Positions 45,319 to 50,200 of a DNA stretch of 50,200 nucleotides are shown one piece after another (positions within the stretch are counted from its first letter, which is position 1; every line of letters begins with the position of its first letter). This stretch comes from Nitrospinaceae bacterium. GTDB taxonomy: Bacteria > Nitrospinota_A > UBA7883 > JAJDBK01. A program made the translations under genes and the position numbers. Location of the stretch: positions 1 through 50,200 of the forward strand of contig JAJDBK010000040.1 of the NCBI GenBank assembly GCA_029261405.1. The letters run 5' to 3'. A model generated the notes under the pieces. That model had not been told where the DNA came from and ran no database searches. It saw only the letters and a list, made by a program, of their open reading frames with translations.

Positions 45319-46524
45319 ATGAAGAAGCTAGTAATAGCGATGTCGTTCGTGGCGTTTGCCATGGTCGGTGTAGTTGCTACGCCTGACGAAGGCTCGGCGC
45401 TTCCCAACTTTGCCAGGCAGACAGGCAACCCCTGTTTCGCTTGCCATTTCCAGCACATTCCCAAACTGAACGCTTTCGGTCGTTCTTTCAAACTGAGCGC
45501 ATACTCTGACGCTACCGTAGATATGATCGAAGACGATCTGCTCTCTACGCCGGCAACCATGCCGCTCGGTTTCGTAACCAAACTGCGTTACCAGACCGAA
45601 ACAAAAAAAACCGCCTCCGAGCCGGAAGAAAAAGGTAAAGAGCGTGGCGAATGGCAACTGCCTGACGAAGCCGCCTTCTGGATGGCTGGCAGAATCGCCG
45701 AAGGTATCGGTTACGCCATTGAGTGGCCTGCAGGTTGGGCTACCGGTAAAGTTATGTTCTCCGCTCCGATCGGTGACGTGATAGCTGGTGTATCAATCTA
45801 CTCCACAGACGCTCTCGGACCTGCATTCGGTCAGGAACTCTTCAACACCGGTATCCTCCGCTCTGTTCGCTCCTTTGAGAACAGAAAAGAGACCATTGTC
45901 GGCCATATCGGCGGAACGACCTACGGCGCCGCCCAGGGTCTGACCTTCTACGCTGGTAACGAGATGTTCTTCGCCGCTGTCGGCCTCTGGGGCCCGGCCT
46001 TCGAGCATGTCGATACCGGCTTCGATCTTTCGACCTGGTACCGCCTTGCTTTCACACCGAACCTCGGTGGATTTGATGTTATGATCGGTGTCTTCGGAAC
46101 CGGTGGCGAGACCAAATGTGTCGAGTGCGCCGAGATCGGAGCCAACGACGATCATAGCCTCCAGACTTTCAAAACCGAGTACTTCGGTGTTGACTTCCAG
46201 GCTCAGGGCGAGCTTGGCAACGGCATGACCCTTGAGTTGCAGGCCATGATGATCACCGCTGGTAGCGGCACCATCTATGCGGAGTCTGACGGTTTCAACT
46301 TCATCGCTGACCTGGGTATCAACCCGGCTCTCACCGTGAAACTCGCTTACATGACTTACACCGACAAGTCTGGTAGCTCCGATGTCGAGACTAACGCCAC
46401 ATCTGTTGGTCTCGCATGGAACGTGGCTCAGAACCTGAGCCTCAGGCCTGAGTTCTCCTTCTTCGGCGGCGACGGCGCCTCCAAGGACAACGCCATGACC
46501 CTGATGTTAATGGGCGGATTCTGA
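45319..46524 (+). CDS. Cyc2-like monoheme cytochrome-porin fusion
   Basis: A 401-residue secreted protein. A signal peptide (1-~27, ending near SALP) is followed by a small cytochrome region FARQTGNPCFACHFQH (heme site C39xxCH43) and LNAFGRSFKLSAY, then a beta-rich domain (~80-401) ending in Phe, as in an outer-membrane barrel. The order FARQTG-CxxCH-FGR-FKL and the fusion to a barrel are the hallmarks of Cyc2, the outer-membrane Fe(II)-oxidising cytochrome of neutrophilic iron oxidisers, and of less studied relatives. A loop carries an extra C267VEC270 pair. The gene has its own promoter and terminator. Iron oxidation is an inference; other electron donors are possible for distant homologs. 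Confidence 0.8.
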   Translation: MKKLVIAMSFVAFAMVGVVATPDEGSALPNFARQTGNPCFACHFQHIPKLNAFGRSFKLSAYSDATVDMIEDDLLSTPATMPLGFVTKLRYQTETKKTASEPEEKGKERGEWQLPDEAAFWMAGRIAEGIGYAIEWPAGWATGKVMFSAPIGDVIAGVSIYSTDALGPAFGQELFNTGILRSVRSFENRKETIVGHIGGTTYGAAQGLTFYAGNEMFFAAVGLWGPAFEHVDTGFDLSTWYRLAFTPNLGGFDVMIGVFGTGGETKCVECAEIGANDDHSLQTFKTEYFGVDFQAQGELGNGMTLELQAMMITAGSGTIYAESDGFNFIADLGINPALTVKLAYMTYTDKSGSSDVETNATSVGLAWNVAQNLSLRPEFSFFGGDGASKDNAMTLMLMGGF

Positions 46525-46870: not shown

Positions 46871-47524
46871 TCAGATCAGCAGGCCATCCCTCATATTAAG
46901 TCTTCGTCCCGCCTTTTTTGCGAGGTTCATGTCGTGGGTTACCATGACCAGCGTCACGCCGGTTTCGTTAAGGTCGCCTAAAATCCTGATTATCATCTCC
47001 CCTGTTTTTGTATCGAGGTTTCCTGTCGGTTCATCGGCTAGGATGACATTCGGTTTTGTGACAATGGCCCGGGCTATGGCTGTCCTCTGCGATTCGCCTC
47101 CTGAAACCTGGGATGGGAAGTGGTCCATTCTGTGATCCAGCCCCACCGTCTCAAGAGCTGTTTTCGCTTGTTGCAGGGGATTTTTTTCGCCCCGGTAATA
47201 TAGGGGGAGCGAGACGTTTTCGAGGAGAGTGTTTCGCGGGAGCAGGTTATGGCTCTGGAATATGAATCCGAGTTCCCTGTTTCTGGTCACAGCAAGTTCG
47301 TCATCACCCAGATGGGCGACGTTCTTGCCGTTCAAGTAGTAGTCACCCCCCGTGGGAGTGTCGAGACATCCCAGGATGTTCATCAGGGTCGATTTCCCGG
47401 AGCCGGAGGGGCCAACCAGAGAGACGAACTCACCTTTATCGACTTTGAAACTGACTCCGCACAACGCCTCAACATCGATTCCGTCCATTCGGTAATGTTT
47501 GGCGACGTTTTCTACCTTGATCAT
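46871..47524 (-). CDS. ABC transporter ATP-binding protein (MacB/LolD type)
   Basis: A 217-residue ATPase with Walker A GPSGSGKST, Q-loop FIFQSHNLLP, signature SGGESQRTAIARA, Walker B VILADEPTGNLD and H-loop VTHD. This pattern is typical of the MacB/LolD/FtsE branch that powers lipoprotein release or export with an adaptor. The gene is 25 bases after the adaptor gene, but no permease follows; the next gene is on the other strand. The permease must be encoded elsewhere or is missing. Confidence 0.92.
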   Translation of the reverse strand: MIKVENVAKHYRMDGIDVEALCGVSFKVDKGEFVSLVGPSGSGKSTLMNILGCLDTPTGGDYYLNGKNVAHLGDDELAVTRNRELGFIFQSHNLLPRNTLLENVSLPLYYRGEKNPLQQAKTALETVGLDHRMDHFPSQVSGGESQRTAIARAIVTKPNVILADEPTGNLDTKTGEMIIRILGDLNETGVTLVMVTHDMNLAKKAGRRLNMRDGLLI

Positions 47525-47549
47525 GTGACACGGAACGGATAGAGGTCCG

Positions 47550-48662
47550 CTACTTCCCCGGCAAGCTTATGTAGACTTTTTCACCCGGCGTGACACCACT
47601 TTCTATGATGGTCTCAAATCCGTTACTTAACCCCGGCGTTACCGATCTTTTAACCGGTTTTCCACCTTTCTCGACCCAGGTGTGGAATATCTCCTCTGAA
47701 CCTTTCCATTCAGAGAGCACAGCCTCTCCCGGCACGATGACCGATTCACCCGATTCCTCTACGAGAATATCGACGTTGGCGGTCATTTGCGGTTTTAACA
47801 GAGCGCGATCCTTGTCGAACGCGTCGATCTTGACTTTGAAAACCGTAATGTTGTTCGATAACTCCCCCATGGGAAAAATTCGGATAACCTTGCCATTGAA
47901 CAATTTCCCGGGGTATGCGTCTACGCTTATAGCGGCTATCTGCCCTGGCGCAACTTTGCCGATATCTGTTTCGTCCACCATGGCGATTACGAATATCTCA
48001 GAAAGATCAGCTACGACGCAAAGCTCGGTACCCCCTGTGACTGACGATATGCCCGATGAAATTATCTGGCCGCGTTGCACCGACTTTTTCAGGATCACTC
48101 CGTCGATAGGGGATAAAATTACGGTCTCCTCCAGCCTTTCCCTTGCGTCGTCAAGCGCCACCTCAGCTTTTTTAAGGGCCGCTGTAGCTCTTTTTACTGC
48201 GGCTTGGGCGCGTACTAGATTTGCGCGACTGGTTTCATAATCCTGTTCGGAATAGATATTTTTTTTCTTCAGGCTGTCTGCTCTTTTGTTTTGAGACTTC
48301 TTCTCGATCAGGTCAGCGTTAGCCGATTGCAGGTCGGCCTCGGCGGAAGTTAAGTCCGCCTCCTTTTGCGCTACGTTCCGTTCTTCGGTTCTTGGGTCGA
48401 GGCGTATTAGTTCCTCCCCTTTTATAACATTGTCACCAGGTTCAAACGGGAATTTTAGGATTTTCCCGGAGGCTTTCGATTTAAGCTCCACTTCAAACCC
48501 CGGCTCCACGGTTCCTGAAGAAGCGACAATGATTTTCACTATTCCTTTGGATGCGGAAACAGATTTTCCAGCGTAGACGGGATTGTCGTTAGCCGACAGA
48601 TATCTTTCTCCCGCAAATAGCGTGGCTATAATCGCAACAGTAAAGATAATATATTTTGTCAT
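47550..48662 (-). CDS. MacA/HlyD-type membrane-fusion (adaptor) protein
   Basis: A 370-residue periplasmic adaptor with an N-terminal anchor or signal (MTKYIIFTVAIIATLFAG), a first lipoyl half (SSGTVEPGFEVELKSKASG), a long coiled-coil hairpin (~95-185), a second lipoyl half (ILSPIDGVILKKSVQRGQ) and a beta-barrel/membrane-proximal region (~215-365). It would connect an inner-membrane ABC transporter to the outer membrane. It heads the two-gene unit with the ABC ATPase. Confidence 0.9.
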   Translation of the reverse strand: MTKYIIFTVAIIATLFAGERYLSANDNPVYAGKSVSASKGIVKIIVASSGTVEPGFEVELKSKASGKILKFPFEPGDNVIKGEELIRLDPRTEERNVAQKEADLTSAEADLQSANADLIEKKSQNKRADSLKKKNIYSEQDYETSRANLVRAQAAVKRATAALKKAEVALDDARERLEETVILSPIDGVILKKSVQRGQIISSGISSVTGGTELCVVADLSEIFVIAMVDETDIGKVAPGQIAAISVDAYPGKLFNGKVIRIFPMGELSNNITVFKVKIDAFDKDRALLKPQMTANVDILVEESGESVIVPGEAVLSEWKGSEEIFHTWVEKGGKPVKRSVTPGLSNGFETIIESGVTPGEKVYISLPGK

Positions 48663-48988: not shown

Positions 48989-50200
48989 ATGCTTCGCAAG
49001 AACTTGATTATACTTGCACTGTTCTGCATCACCGTAATGACAGCCTGTGGAGGCGGCGGTGGAGGTGGATCAACGCCAGGCTCTTCCTCCGGAACCGATA
49101 GCGGTGGTAGCGCCAAGGTGACGAATCTGAGCGATATCGCGCTCACGCCAGACTATTCCTGGCACGACTCTTACCTCGTAGGCTCTCATACAGGGTACGC
49201 CTGTACCGACTGTCATGCAACATCGGCAAGAGTTAACGGGCTGGAAAACTCCGAGATCTGTAGCTCATGTCACGCCGCACAATATAACGCCACGACGTTA
49301 CCTAACCACGCGGAATACTCCATACCGACCCAATGTAACTCGTGTCACTATTCAGACAGCTTTACATCCCACTCCAGGGTTGAGACCACGGCGTATCACG
49401 ATGTATTGGATAGCAGTTGCGAAAGCTGTCACTACTCGGACAGGCCGTCAACTCACGATGCGGATGGAAGAACCTCCGGTTGCGCGAGCTGTCATTCATA
49501 CTCCAGCGGTGGATGGGTAACAAGCTCTTCTTCCAGTCACAACCATACGAGCGGTTGCTCGAGCTGTCATTCAGCCGATCAACCAGCAAACCACTATGGT
49601 GACACCTGTGAAGATTGCCACACCTACAACGTATGGGCCAACGCTACCTTAAGTTCCCATAACTATACGTCTGGTTGTCAAAGCTGTCATTCAGCCGATC
49701 AGCCTGCGAATCACTACGGTGACACCTGCGAAGAATGTCACACCTATCCGAGCTGGTCAGGAGCGTCTCTTGCGAGTCACACCTATACGTCGGGCTGTTC
49801 GAGCTGTCACTCAGGTGATTCGCCTTCAAACCACTACGGTACCACCTGTGAAGAATGTCACACCTATCCGAGTTGGGGTAGCGCCACTTTCAGCCATAGC
49901 GGCATATCAAGCGGTTGCTCCTCGTGTCACTCGAAACACTATTCAGGTTACGAATGTGAATGGTGTCACACCTCTGGTATCAGTTGGAGCTACAGCCATA
50001 ACAAAGTTGTAGATAACGGTACCACCTGTTACGCTTGTCACTCCAGCGGAACCGGAGACGACGATGATGACGATGATGACGACGATGACGATGGTGATGA
50101 TGACGATGACGATGATGATGACAACGGTGGCGGCGGTGGAGACAGACCGACTCCTCCTCCCGGCGGTGGCGGTGGCGGTGACGACCGTGACGACGACTAG
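48989..50200 (+). CDS. 14-heme c-type cytochrome lipoprotein with repeats and poly-Asp tail
   Basis: A 403-residue protein, complete to the last base of the window. The signal peptide ends in VMTAC (C20), a probable lipobox followed by seven Gly. Fourteen CxxCH sites occur between residues 72 and 351 (CTDCH, CSSCH, CNSCH, CESCH, CASCH, CSSCH, CEDCH, CQSCH, CEECH, CSSCH, CEECH, CSSCH, CEWCH, CYACH), with many extra His residues for axial ligation. Residues 184-303 are three near-identical 40-residue units carrying two hemes each, with a degenerate fourth. The C-terminus has 12 Asp, Gly, 9 Asp (357-378), then Gly-rich and Pro-rich stretches. It is likely outer-membrane or surface attached and moves electrons. 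I do not recognise a named family. The ribosome site is AAGGAAGAG. Confidence 0.9.
   Translation: MLRKNLIILALFCITVMTACGGGGGGGSTPGSSSGTDSGGSAKVTNLSDIALTPDYSWHDSYLVGSHTGYACTDCHATSARVNGLENSEICSSCHAAQYNATTLPNHAEYSIPTQCNSCHYSDSFTSHSRVETTAYHDVLDSSCESCHYSDRPSTHDADGRTSGCASCHSYSSGGWVTSSSSSHNHTSGCSSCHSADQPANHYGDTCEDCHTYNVWANATLSSHNYTSGCQSCHSADQPANHYGDTCEECHTYPSWSGASLASHTYTSGCSSCHSGDSPSNHYGTTCEECHTYPSWGSATFSHSGISSGCSSCHSKHYSGYECEWCHTSGISWSYSHNKVVDNGTTCYACHSSGTGDDDDDDDDDDDDGDDDDDDDDDNGGGGGDRPTPPPGGGGGGDDRDDD
49538..49897 (+). repeat. Three 120-bp tandem repeats in the multiheme gene
   Basis: Cysteine positions 190, 230 and 270 (and 207, 247, 287) are exactly 40 residues apart; the DNA is also very similar, so the units duplicated recently. 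Each unit encodes SH(N/T)xTSGC-xSCHS-x-NHYGxTCE(E/D)CHTY. Confidence 0.85.
50057..50122 (+). repeat. GAY-codon microsatellite (poly-Asp)
   Basis: An uninterrupted run of GAC/GAT codons with one GGT, encoding D12-G-D9. Such trinucleotide runs may change length by slippage without breaking the frame. Confidence 0.85.

What the first reader, a model, noticed from the sequence alone, without database searches (positions are those of the whole stretch)
48989..50200. A 14-heme lipoprotein built by 40-residue duplication and capped with a poly-Asp tail
Fourteen CxxCH motifs in 403 residues, three near-identical two-heme units and a terminal run of 21 Asp residues are seen directly. Known extracellular-electron-transfer cytochromes (OmcS, MtrC types) do not have this combination that I can recall. 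The Asp run could bind Ca2+, Fe or mineral surfaces, or anchor filaments. The exact 40-residue period and DNA-level similarity suggest recent growth of a heme wire.
Basis: partly seen in the sequence, partly recalled or inferred. Interest (0 to 1): 0.78.

Follow-up and report, generated by a model that had tools for sequence, protein, structure and literature searches.

The report
Repeat-built multiheme surface cytochrome, Nitrospinota
The gene encodes a lipid-anchored cytochrome with 14 haems, made longer by repeating a two-haem block and ending in a very acidic tail, and it most likely forms the outer contact of a protein wire that moves electrons between these uncultured bacteria and iron or minerals outside the cell.

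Summary
The gene is real: 403 aa, lipobox Cys20, 14 CxxCH, exact 40-residue periodicity and an acidic tail. Three details change. The 21 Asp are 12+9 split by Gly and are followed by 25 more residues. The repeat units are 70-78% identical in protein but only 67-72% in DNA, so they are not a recent duplication. The gene ends on the last base of its contig (contig C61 repeats the last 141 bp and continues).

It belongs to an uncharacterised Nitrospinota lipoprotein family with modular haem number: three-haem head, n two-haem units, three-haem cap (8, 10, 12, 14, at least 16 haems). In three relatives it lies directly upstream of a giant 27-34-haem cytochrome whose stop overlaps the start of a beta-barrel porin gene. 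The window's genome has that pair elsewhere, plus an inner-membrane protein with the PCC3 signature. Giant cytochrome and porin are homologous to genes in PCC3-type porin-cytochrome clusters of other phyla.

Best reading: the outer-surface terminal cytochrome of a PCC3-like conduit. The poly-Asp is an expansion of an acidic tail typical of the order; its function is untested. A Cyc2-like iron-oxidase candidate lies 2.5 kb upstream. New variant of a known kind.

The parts
48989..50200 (+). CDS of the 14-haem lipoprotein, 403 aa plus stop
   Evidence: 14 CxxCH; Pfam Cytochrome_C7 and Cytochrom_c3_2 above cut-off
48989..49048 (+). Lipoprotein signal peptide with lipobox Cys20 (MTAC|G)
   Evidence: sequence; Cys20 invariant in 9 homologues
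49049..49114 (+). Gly/Ser-rich linker after the lipidated Cys
   Evidence: sequence; absence of Asp at +2 suggests outer membrane (established rule, inference)
49115..49393 (+). Head with haem motifs 1-3 (CTDCH, CSSCH, CNSCH)
   Evidence: conserved in all order members; first motif is CX3CH in G001 and G006
49394..49525 (+). Two-haem unit 1 (44-aa form; haems 4-5)
49535..49654 (+). Two-haem unit 2 (40 aa; haems 6-7)
49655..49774 (+). Two-haem unit 3 (40 aa; haems 8-9)
49775..49894 (+). Two-haem unit 4 (40 aa; haems 10-11)
49895..50050 (+). Cap with haem motifs 12-14 (SGCSSCHSKHYSGYECEWCHTSGISWSYSH...CYACH), the most conserved part of the family
50057..50122 (+). Asp stretch D12-G-D9
   Evidence: also present at the start of contig C61
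50123..50197 (+). Rest of the tail, Gly/Pro/Asp-rich, NGGGGGDRPTPPPGGGGGGDDRDDD
45319..46524 (+). Neighbour, probably same physiology: Cyc2-like monohaem cytochrome, possibly fused to a porin
   Evidence: ALPNFARQT-GNP-CFACH-FQHI-PKL, 401 aa, matches the Cyc2 signature of PMC8406198; weak BBP2 barrel match
46871..48662 (-). Divergent neighbour pair: MacA/HlyD-like adaptor (47550-48662) and LolD/MacB-like ABC ATPase (46871-47524); kept next to this gene in G001 and G006, role in this system unknown

Best explanation
The protein is an outer-membrane lipoprotein displayed on the cell surface and is the terminal extracellular cytochrome of a PCC3-like porin-cytochrome conduit. Inferred path: quinone pool <-> inner-membrane b-haem protein (C57) <-> periplasmic multihaem cytochromes <-> giant 29-haem cytochrome threaded through the 22-strand porin (C45) <-> this 14-haem rod <-> iron or mineral outside. 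Each 40-aa block adds two haems, so duplicating blocks lengthens the haem chain without changing head or cap. The acidic tail is a flexible, highly charged tip that could bind cations or mineral, or dock on the basic giant cytochrome. Shown: anatomy, modularity, family, gene linkage in relatives, homology of giant cytochrome and porin to genes of PCC3-type clusters. Inferred: haem attachment, surface location, electron flow and its direction, tail function.
For: Lipobox and Gly-rich linker. Directly upstream of a giant cytochrome gene whose stop overlaps the porin start in G004, G009 and G008, and on the same contig as the start of the giant gene in G011. Own genome has the giant cytochrome (29 CxxCH) and porin. 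Porin single-copy in 20 of 23 phylum genomes, 22-strand barrel model, pLDDT 72. Porin homologues outside the phylum lie in PCC3-type clusters in G105, G178 and G194. Giant N-terminal region aligns with the periplasmic cytochromes of those clusters at 31-33% over 559-606 columns. Own genome has an inner-membrane protein with two WX3HX13H and SGXXG beside an 8-haem cytochrome, the PCC3 signature of PMC5566968. 16 non-motif His for 14 haems. Opposite charges: lipoprotein body -23 and tail -25, giant +44.
Against: In the window's own genome (and G001) the lipoprotein gene is not next to giant cytochrome and porin. The giant cytochrome already carries a C-terminal part resembling PCC3 extracellular cytochromes, so the conduit might not need another surface cytochrome. 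Sequence does not assign the lipoprotein to the PCC3 extracellular subunit better than to other multihaem proteins. Structure prediction failed (pLDDT 38). No experiment.
Confidence: 0.62

Rival explanations
1. A periplasm-facing outer-membrane lipoprotein: a 14-haem electron reservoir or shuttle that feeds the giant cytochrome from the inside rather than contacting minerals outside.
For: A lipobox alone does not show surface exposure; the giant cytochrome has its own extracellular-like C-terminal part.
Against: Ser/Thr/Gly-rich composition (S 17.4%, T 8.9%, G 11.4%, K 1.0%) is like that described for extracellular PCC3 cytochromes in PMC5566968, unlike the Lys-rich giant protein (K 11.6%); long Gly-rich linker and acidic tail.
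Confidence: 0.2
2. The cytochrome is one of several stand-alone surface cytochromes unrelated to the giant cytochrome-porin pair, tied instead to the neighbouring Cyc2-like protein or the HlyD/ATPase pair.
For: In the window genome and two relatives (G001, G006) it neighbours HlyD and ATPase genes; a Cyc2-like gene is 2.5 kb upstream.
Against: Linkage to giant cytochrome and porin in three to four f5 genomes. In the relatives the best Cyc2-like matches lie on contigs or positions other than the lipoprotein gene.
Confidence: 0.13
3. The poly-Asp tail is simple-sequence drift (codon-repeat slippage in a tolerant disordered end) without its own function. This concerns the tail only and is not exclusive of the main explanation.
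For: The tail varies strongly among orthologues (5-52 residues after the last CxxCH); D12 in G009 but not in its family member G004; another own-genome protein, a GspH-like pseudopilin, carries a longer Asp tail; the contigs split at the tail.
Against: An acidic end is kept in all complete order members even where it is not poly-Asp, and is missing in the sister family; both Asp-rich own-genome proteins are predicted envelope or surface proteins; the Asp codons mix GAC and GAT rather than being one pure triplet.
Confidence: 0.4

Closest known systems
PCC3 porin-cytochrome complex (He et al. 2017, PMC5566968; Gallionellaceae survey PMC10734462)
   Same: Porin, giant periplasmic cytochrome, repeat-built Ser/Thr/Gly-rich extracellular cytochrome with variable haem number, inner-membrane protein with WX3HX13H twice and SGXXG; giant cytochrome and porin homologous to genes in clusters with this architecture in G105, G178 and G194.
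   Different: Genes scattered in the window genome; surface cytochrome is a lipoprotein with acidic tail and is not demonstrably homologous to the PCC3 extracellular subunit; the giant cytochrome looks like a periplasmic-extracellular fusion.
MtrCAB / OmcA-MtrC
   Same: Same plan: lipid-anchored surface multihaem cytochrome with porin and porin-inserted cytochrome.
   Different: No MtrC four-domain layout; PF22113 (MtrC domains II/IV) only below its cut-off (23.6 vs 30 bits); 14 haems in a repeat array instead of 10.
PgcA of Geobacter (PMC11520253)
   Same: Extracellular electron-transfer cytochrome with low-complexity segments proposed to bind minerals.
   Different: PgcA has three separate monohaem domains joined by Pro/Thr linkers; here 14 haems at about 29 aa per haem and a single terminal acidic tail.
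Cytochrome c7 / small tetraheme cytochrome families (PF14522, PF14537; STC 1m1p)
   Same: Best sequence matches.
   Different: Matches cover part of the protein and follow CxxCH spacing; no solved relative covers the whole protein.
OmcS-type cytochrome filaments
   Same: Extracellular multihaem protein.
   Different: Lipidated N-terminus, 14 haems, no sequence match to filament cytochromes in the PDB searches.

Membership tests
PCC3 conduit (PMC5566968) | Outer-membrane beta-barrel porin | tested here: met
   Own-genome homologue on C45, E 1.7e-62 to the G004 porin; 22-strand model of the G004 porin; distant homologues in PCC3-type clusters
PCC3 conduit (PMC5566968) | Periplasmic cytochrome with many haems | tested here: met
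   29-CxxCH protein on C45; N-terminal region 31-33% identical to PCC3-type 20-haem proteins over 567-606 columns
PCC3 conduit (PMC5566968) | Inner-membrane protein with two WX3HX13H and SGXXG | tested here: met
   L011 6478-7071, C57, both motifs and SGFVG; five helices not clearly resolved by the simple hydropathy scan
PCC3 conduit (PMC5566968) | Extracellular cytochrome with repeat units and many haems, homologous to the known PCC3 one | tested here: inconclusive
   Properties fit; profile scores do not separate PCC3 extracellular from other multihaem proteins
PCC3 conduit (PMC5566968) | All components in one gene cluster | tested here: not met
   Own genome: lipoprotein C40, giant and porin C45, inner-membrane protein C57; three components together only in relatives
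PCC3 conduit (PMC5566968) | Direct sequence match to the Sideroxydans ES-1 reference genes | not tested
   Reference sequences not held in a searchable named form here
MtrC/OmcA family | Decahaem protein with MtrC domains II/IV (PF22113) above cut-off | tested here: not met
   23.6 bits against a cut-off of 30; 14 haems
OmcS-type filament cytochrome | Sequence homology to filament subunits | tested here: not met
   No filament cytochrome among PDB sequence matches
OmcS-type filament cytochrome | Polymerisation into filaments | not testable with these tools
   Needs microscopy
c-type multihaem cytochrome | Covalent haem at each CxxCH | not testable with these tools
   16 non-motif His are enough for bis-His ligation; attachment needs mass spectrometry
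Cyc2 (neighbouring ORF 45319-46524) | AXPXFAR[Q/K][T/Y] upstream of a single CXXCH, PXL 4 residues after it, at least 365 aa | tested here: met
   ALPNFARQT, 3 residues, CFACH, PKL 4 residues on, 401 aa; the paper gives 5 residues upstream, so the spacing count differs
Cyc2 (neighbouring ORF 45319-46524) | 16-strand porin fused to the cytochrome | tested here: inconclusive
   Only a weak BBP2 barrel match, E 0.018; not modelled

The most novel reading that the evidence does not exclude
Nitrospinota carry their own class of porin-cytochrome conduit: a giant cytochrome that fuses the periplasmic and extracellular PCC3 parts, plus a separate lipid-anchored, length-variable haem rod whose two-haem modules are gained and lost between species and whose poly-acidic tip makes the contact with iron or mineral.
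Probability: 0.3. Interest if true: 0.62.

Novelty: new variant of a known kind. Interest (0 to 1): 0.45.

Why it matters
It ties a phylum usually discussed for nitrite oxidation to a set of extracellular-electron-transfer parts (Cyc2-like protein, PCC3-like giant cytochrome and porin, surface cytochrome). It also gives a natural series of one protein with 8, 10, 12, 14 and at least 16 haems between the same head and cap. That series allows a direct test of how haem-chain length affects reach and rate, and whether acidic tails serve mineral contact.

Tried and rejected
Recent tandem growth in this gene: rejected on DNA identity of 67-72% with many synonymous changes. Poly-Asp as a unique invention of this cytochrome: rejected, since a GspH-like pseudopilin in the same genome has a longer Asp tail and the G009 orthologue has D12. 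First genome-contig scan with the single protein found no relatives; the alignment scan found six named loci, five titled Nitrospinota and one Nitrospirae. AlphaFold of the lipoprotein was uninformative, so no fold search was run on it. Fold search of the porin model gave generic barrels (ushers, porins), not MtrB specifically. Sequence searches of the porin profile and of the giant cytochrome against the PDB found nothing. Literature searches on polyaspartate with cytochromes and on Nitrospinota electron transfer gave no paper on this protein.

Full report
Observation. The ORF at 48989-50200 (+) encodes 403 residues with 14 CxxCH motifs. Shuffling the mature body 1000 times never gave more than 3 CxxCH or more than 12/40 matches at offset 40, against 14 and 32 observed, and 40 is the only strong period. 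The N-terminus MLRKNLIILALFCITVMTAC-GGGG is a lipoprotein signal, and the Cys is invariant in nine homologues. The tail after the last haem is SSGTG-D12-G-D9-NGGGGGDRPTPPPGGGGGGDDRDDD.

Assembly. The window is a whole contig (G000:C40, 50,200 bp) and the stop codon is its last three bases. Contig C61 starts with the same 141 bp, tail and stop included, and runs on into a strong hairpin followed by a T run (z = -4.7). The gene end is therefore credible, but the tail lies on an assembly branch, as expected for a simple repeat or population variation (inference).

Repeats. Units 2-4 are 28-31/40 identical in protein but 80-86/120 in DNA, with 9-14 synonymous codon differences per pair: old duplications kept by selection on the protein. 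A fourth, 44-residue unit precedes them. Units 2 and 3 of the window gene are closest to each other, while unit 4 is closest to a unit of G004, so part of the expansion may be shared with relatives. A truly recent duplication exists in the relative G011 (123/129 DNA identity). In G006 units 3-5 are closest to each other, an independent expansion.

Family. Homologues occur across the order and, more weakly, the class. Named copies are mostly Nitrospinota MAGs (one record is titled Nitrospirae). In G001 and G006 the first site is CX3CH. All complete order-level members have an Asp-containing end, mostly an acidic Gly/His/Asp tail; sister-family members end in short near-neutral tails. Runs of 10 or more Asp codons occur in the 24 genomes of the phylum only in this gene (repeated at the start of C61), in the G009 orthologue, in one other G002 protein, and in a GspH-like pseudopilin of the same genome.

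Context. In G004, G009 and G008 the lipoprotein gene (two copies in G008) lies directly upstream of a 27-34-haem cytochrome gene whose stop overlaps the start of a porin gene. In G011 the contig shows two lipoprotein genes and then the start of the giant gene. The porin is found in 20 of 23 searched genomes of the phylum, own genome included, as one copy each (G022 in two contig pieces), and its model is a 22-strand barrel. The own genome has the giant cytochrome (29 CxxCH) and porin on C45. In the window genome, G001 and G006 the lipoprotein gene instead neighbours an HlyD/ATPase pair.

Link to a known system. PCC3 was defined as porin + extracellular + periplasmic multihaem cytochromes + an inner-membrane protein with two WX3HX13H and SGXXG (PMC5566968). 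Its extracellular part varies from 10 to 35 haems in Gallionellaceae (PMC10734462). The own genome has a protein with exactly these inner-membrane motifs next to an 8-haem cytochrome on C57. Searching 289 genomes with the porin profile found distant homologues outside the phylum. Three of these (G105, G178, G194) lie in clusters of the inner-membrane protein, a 20-haem cytochrome starting QISPG.L, a 19-31-haem repeat cytochrome, and the porin; two more (G056, G066) lie beside a 27-haem cytochrome. The N-terminal two thirds of the Nitrospinota giant cytochrome aligns with those periplasmic proteins much better than with the extracellular ones, while its C-terminal third scores higher with the extracellular proteins than with the 20-haem periplasmic ones, suggesting a fusion. 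The lipoprotein itself cannot be assigned to the PCC3 extracellular subunit by sequence.

Iron. The window ORF 45319-46524 carries the Cyc2 signature AXPXFAR[QK][TY]-CXXCH-PXL (ALPNFARQT, CFACH, PKL) and is 401 aa long. PMC9769843 reports Cyc2 homologues in Nitrospinota MAGs. This favours an iron-linked role, without fixing the direction of electron flow.

Mechanism. Most likely the protein is the outermost cytochrome of this conduit: anchored by its lipid, carrying a chain of bis-His haems (16 non-motif His for 14 haems), with reach set by the number of units and a charged flexible tip. Body and tail are strongly acidic (-23 and -25) while the giant cytochrome is basic (+44), which would suit docking (inference). 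The main alternative is a periplasm-facing reservoir. Structure prediction did not help.

Verdict. A real and well-formed member of a so far uncharacterised Nitrospinota cytochrome family that works like the surface subunit of PCC3/MtrCAB conduits. The haem-number series among relatives is the most useful part. The Asp run is striking, but it is an expansion of an existing acidic tail and is not unique to this protein.

Noticed in passing
window 45319-46524 (+): Cyc2-like monohaem cytochrome with the AXPXFARQT, CXXCH and PXL signature (a candidate Fe(II) oxidase); full-length homologues in many genomes of the phylum.
   Followed up: partly
L010 4777-5622 (own contig C43, about 87.4 kb): GspH/FimT-like pseudopilin with a C-terminal tail of more than 60 nearly uninterrupted Asp.
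   Followed up: partly
L012 5957-8713 (own contig C45): Giant 29-haem cytochrome that looks like a fusion of the periplasmic and extracellular PCC3 cytochromes, next to its porin.
   Followed up: partly
L045 2130-3158 (G011): Recent in-frame 43-residue two-haem duplication (123/129 DNA identity) in an orthologue.
   Followed up: yes
L046 8034-8954, L048 8935-9819, L049 2233-3303: First haem site is CX3CH (CGTTCH or CGDTCH), and several sister-family members have CX4CH sites.
   Followed up: partly
window 46871-48662 (-): HlyD/MacA-like adaptor and LolD/MacB-like ATPase without an adjacent permease gene; the same pair sits beside the lipoprotein gene in G001 and G006.
   Followed up: partly
L042 11753-13288, L046 5731-7212, L051 1517-2992, L052 1731-3215: Membrane protein with a spermine-synthase domain (Pfam hit tested for L042 only) next to or near the cytochrome gene in several relatives.
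   Followed up: no
window 50060-50200 and G000:C61:1-141: Exact 141-bp overlap of two contigs across the poly-Asp tail, an assembly branch that could reflect tail-length variation in the population.
   Followed up: no
L068 1614-2420 (G002): Unrelated secreted-looking protein with a D10 run beside a paralogue, in another genome of the order.
   Followed up: no
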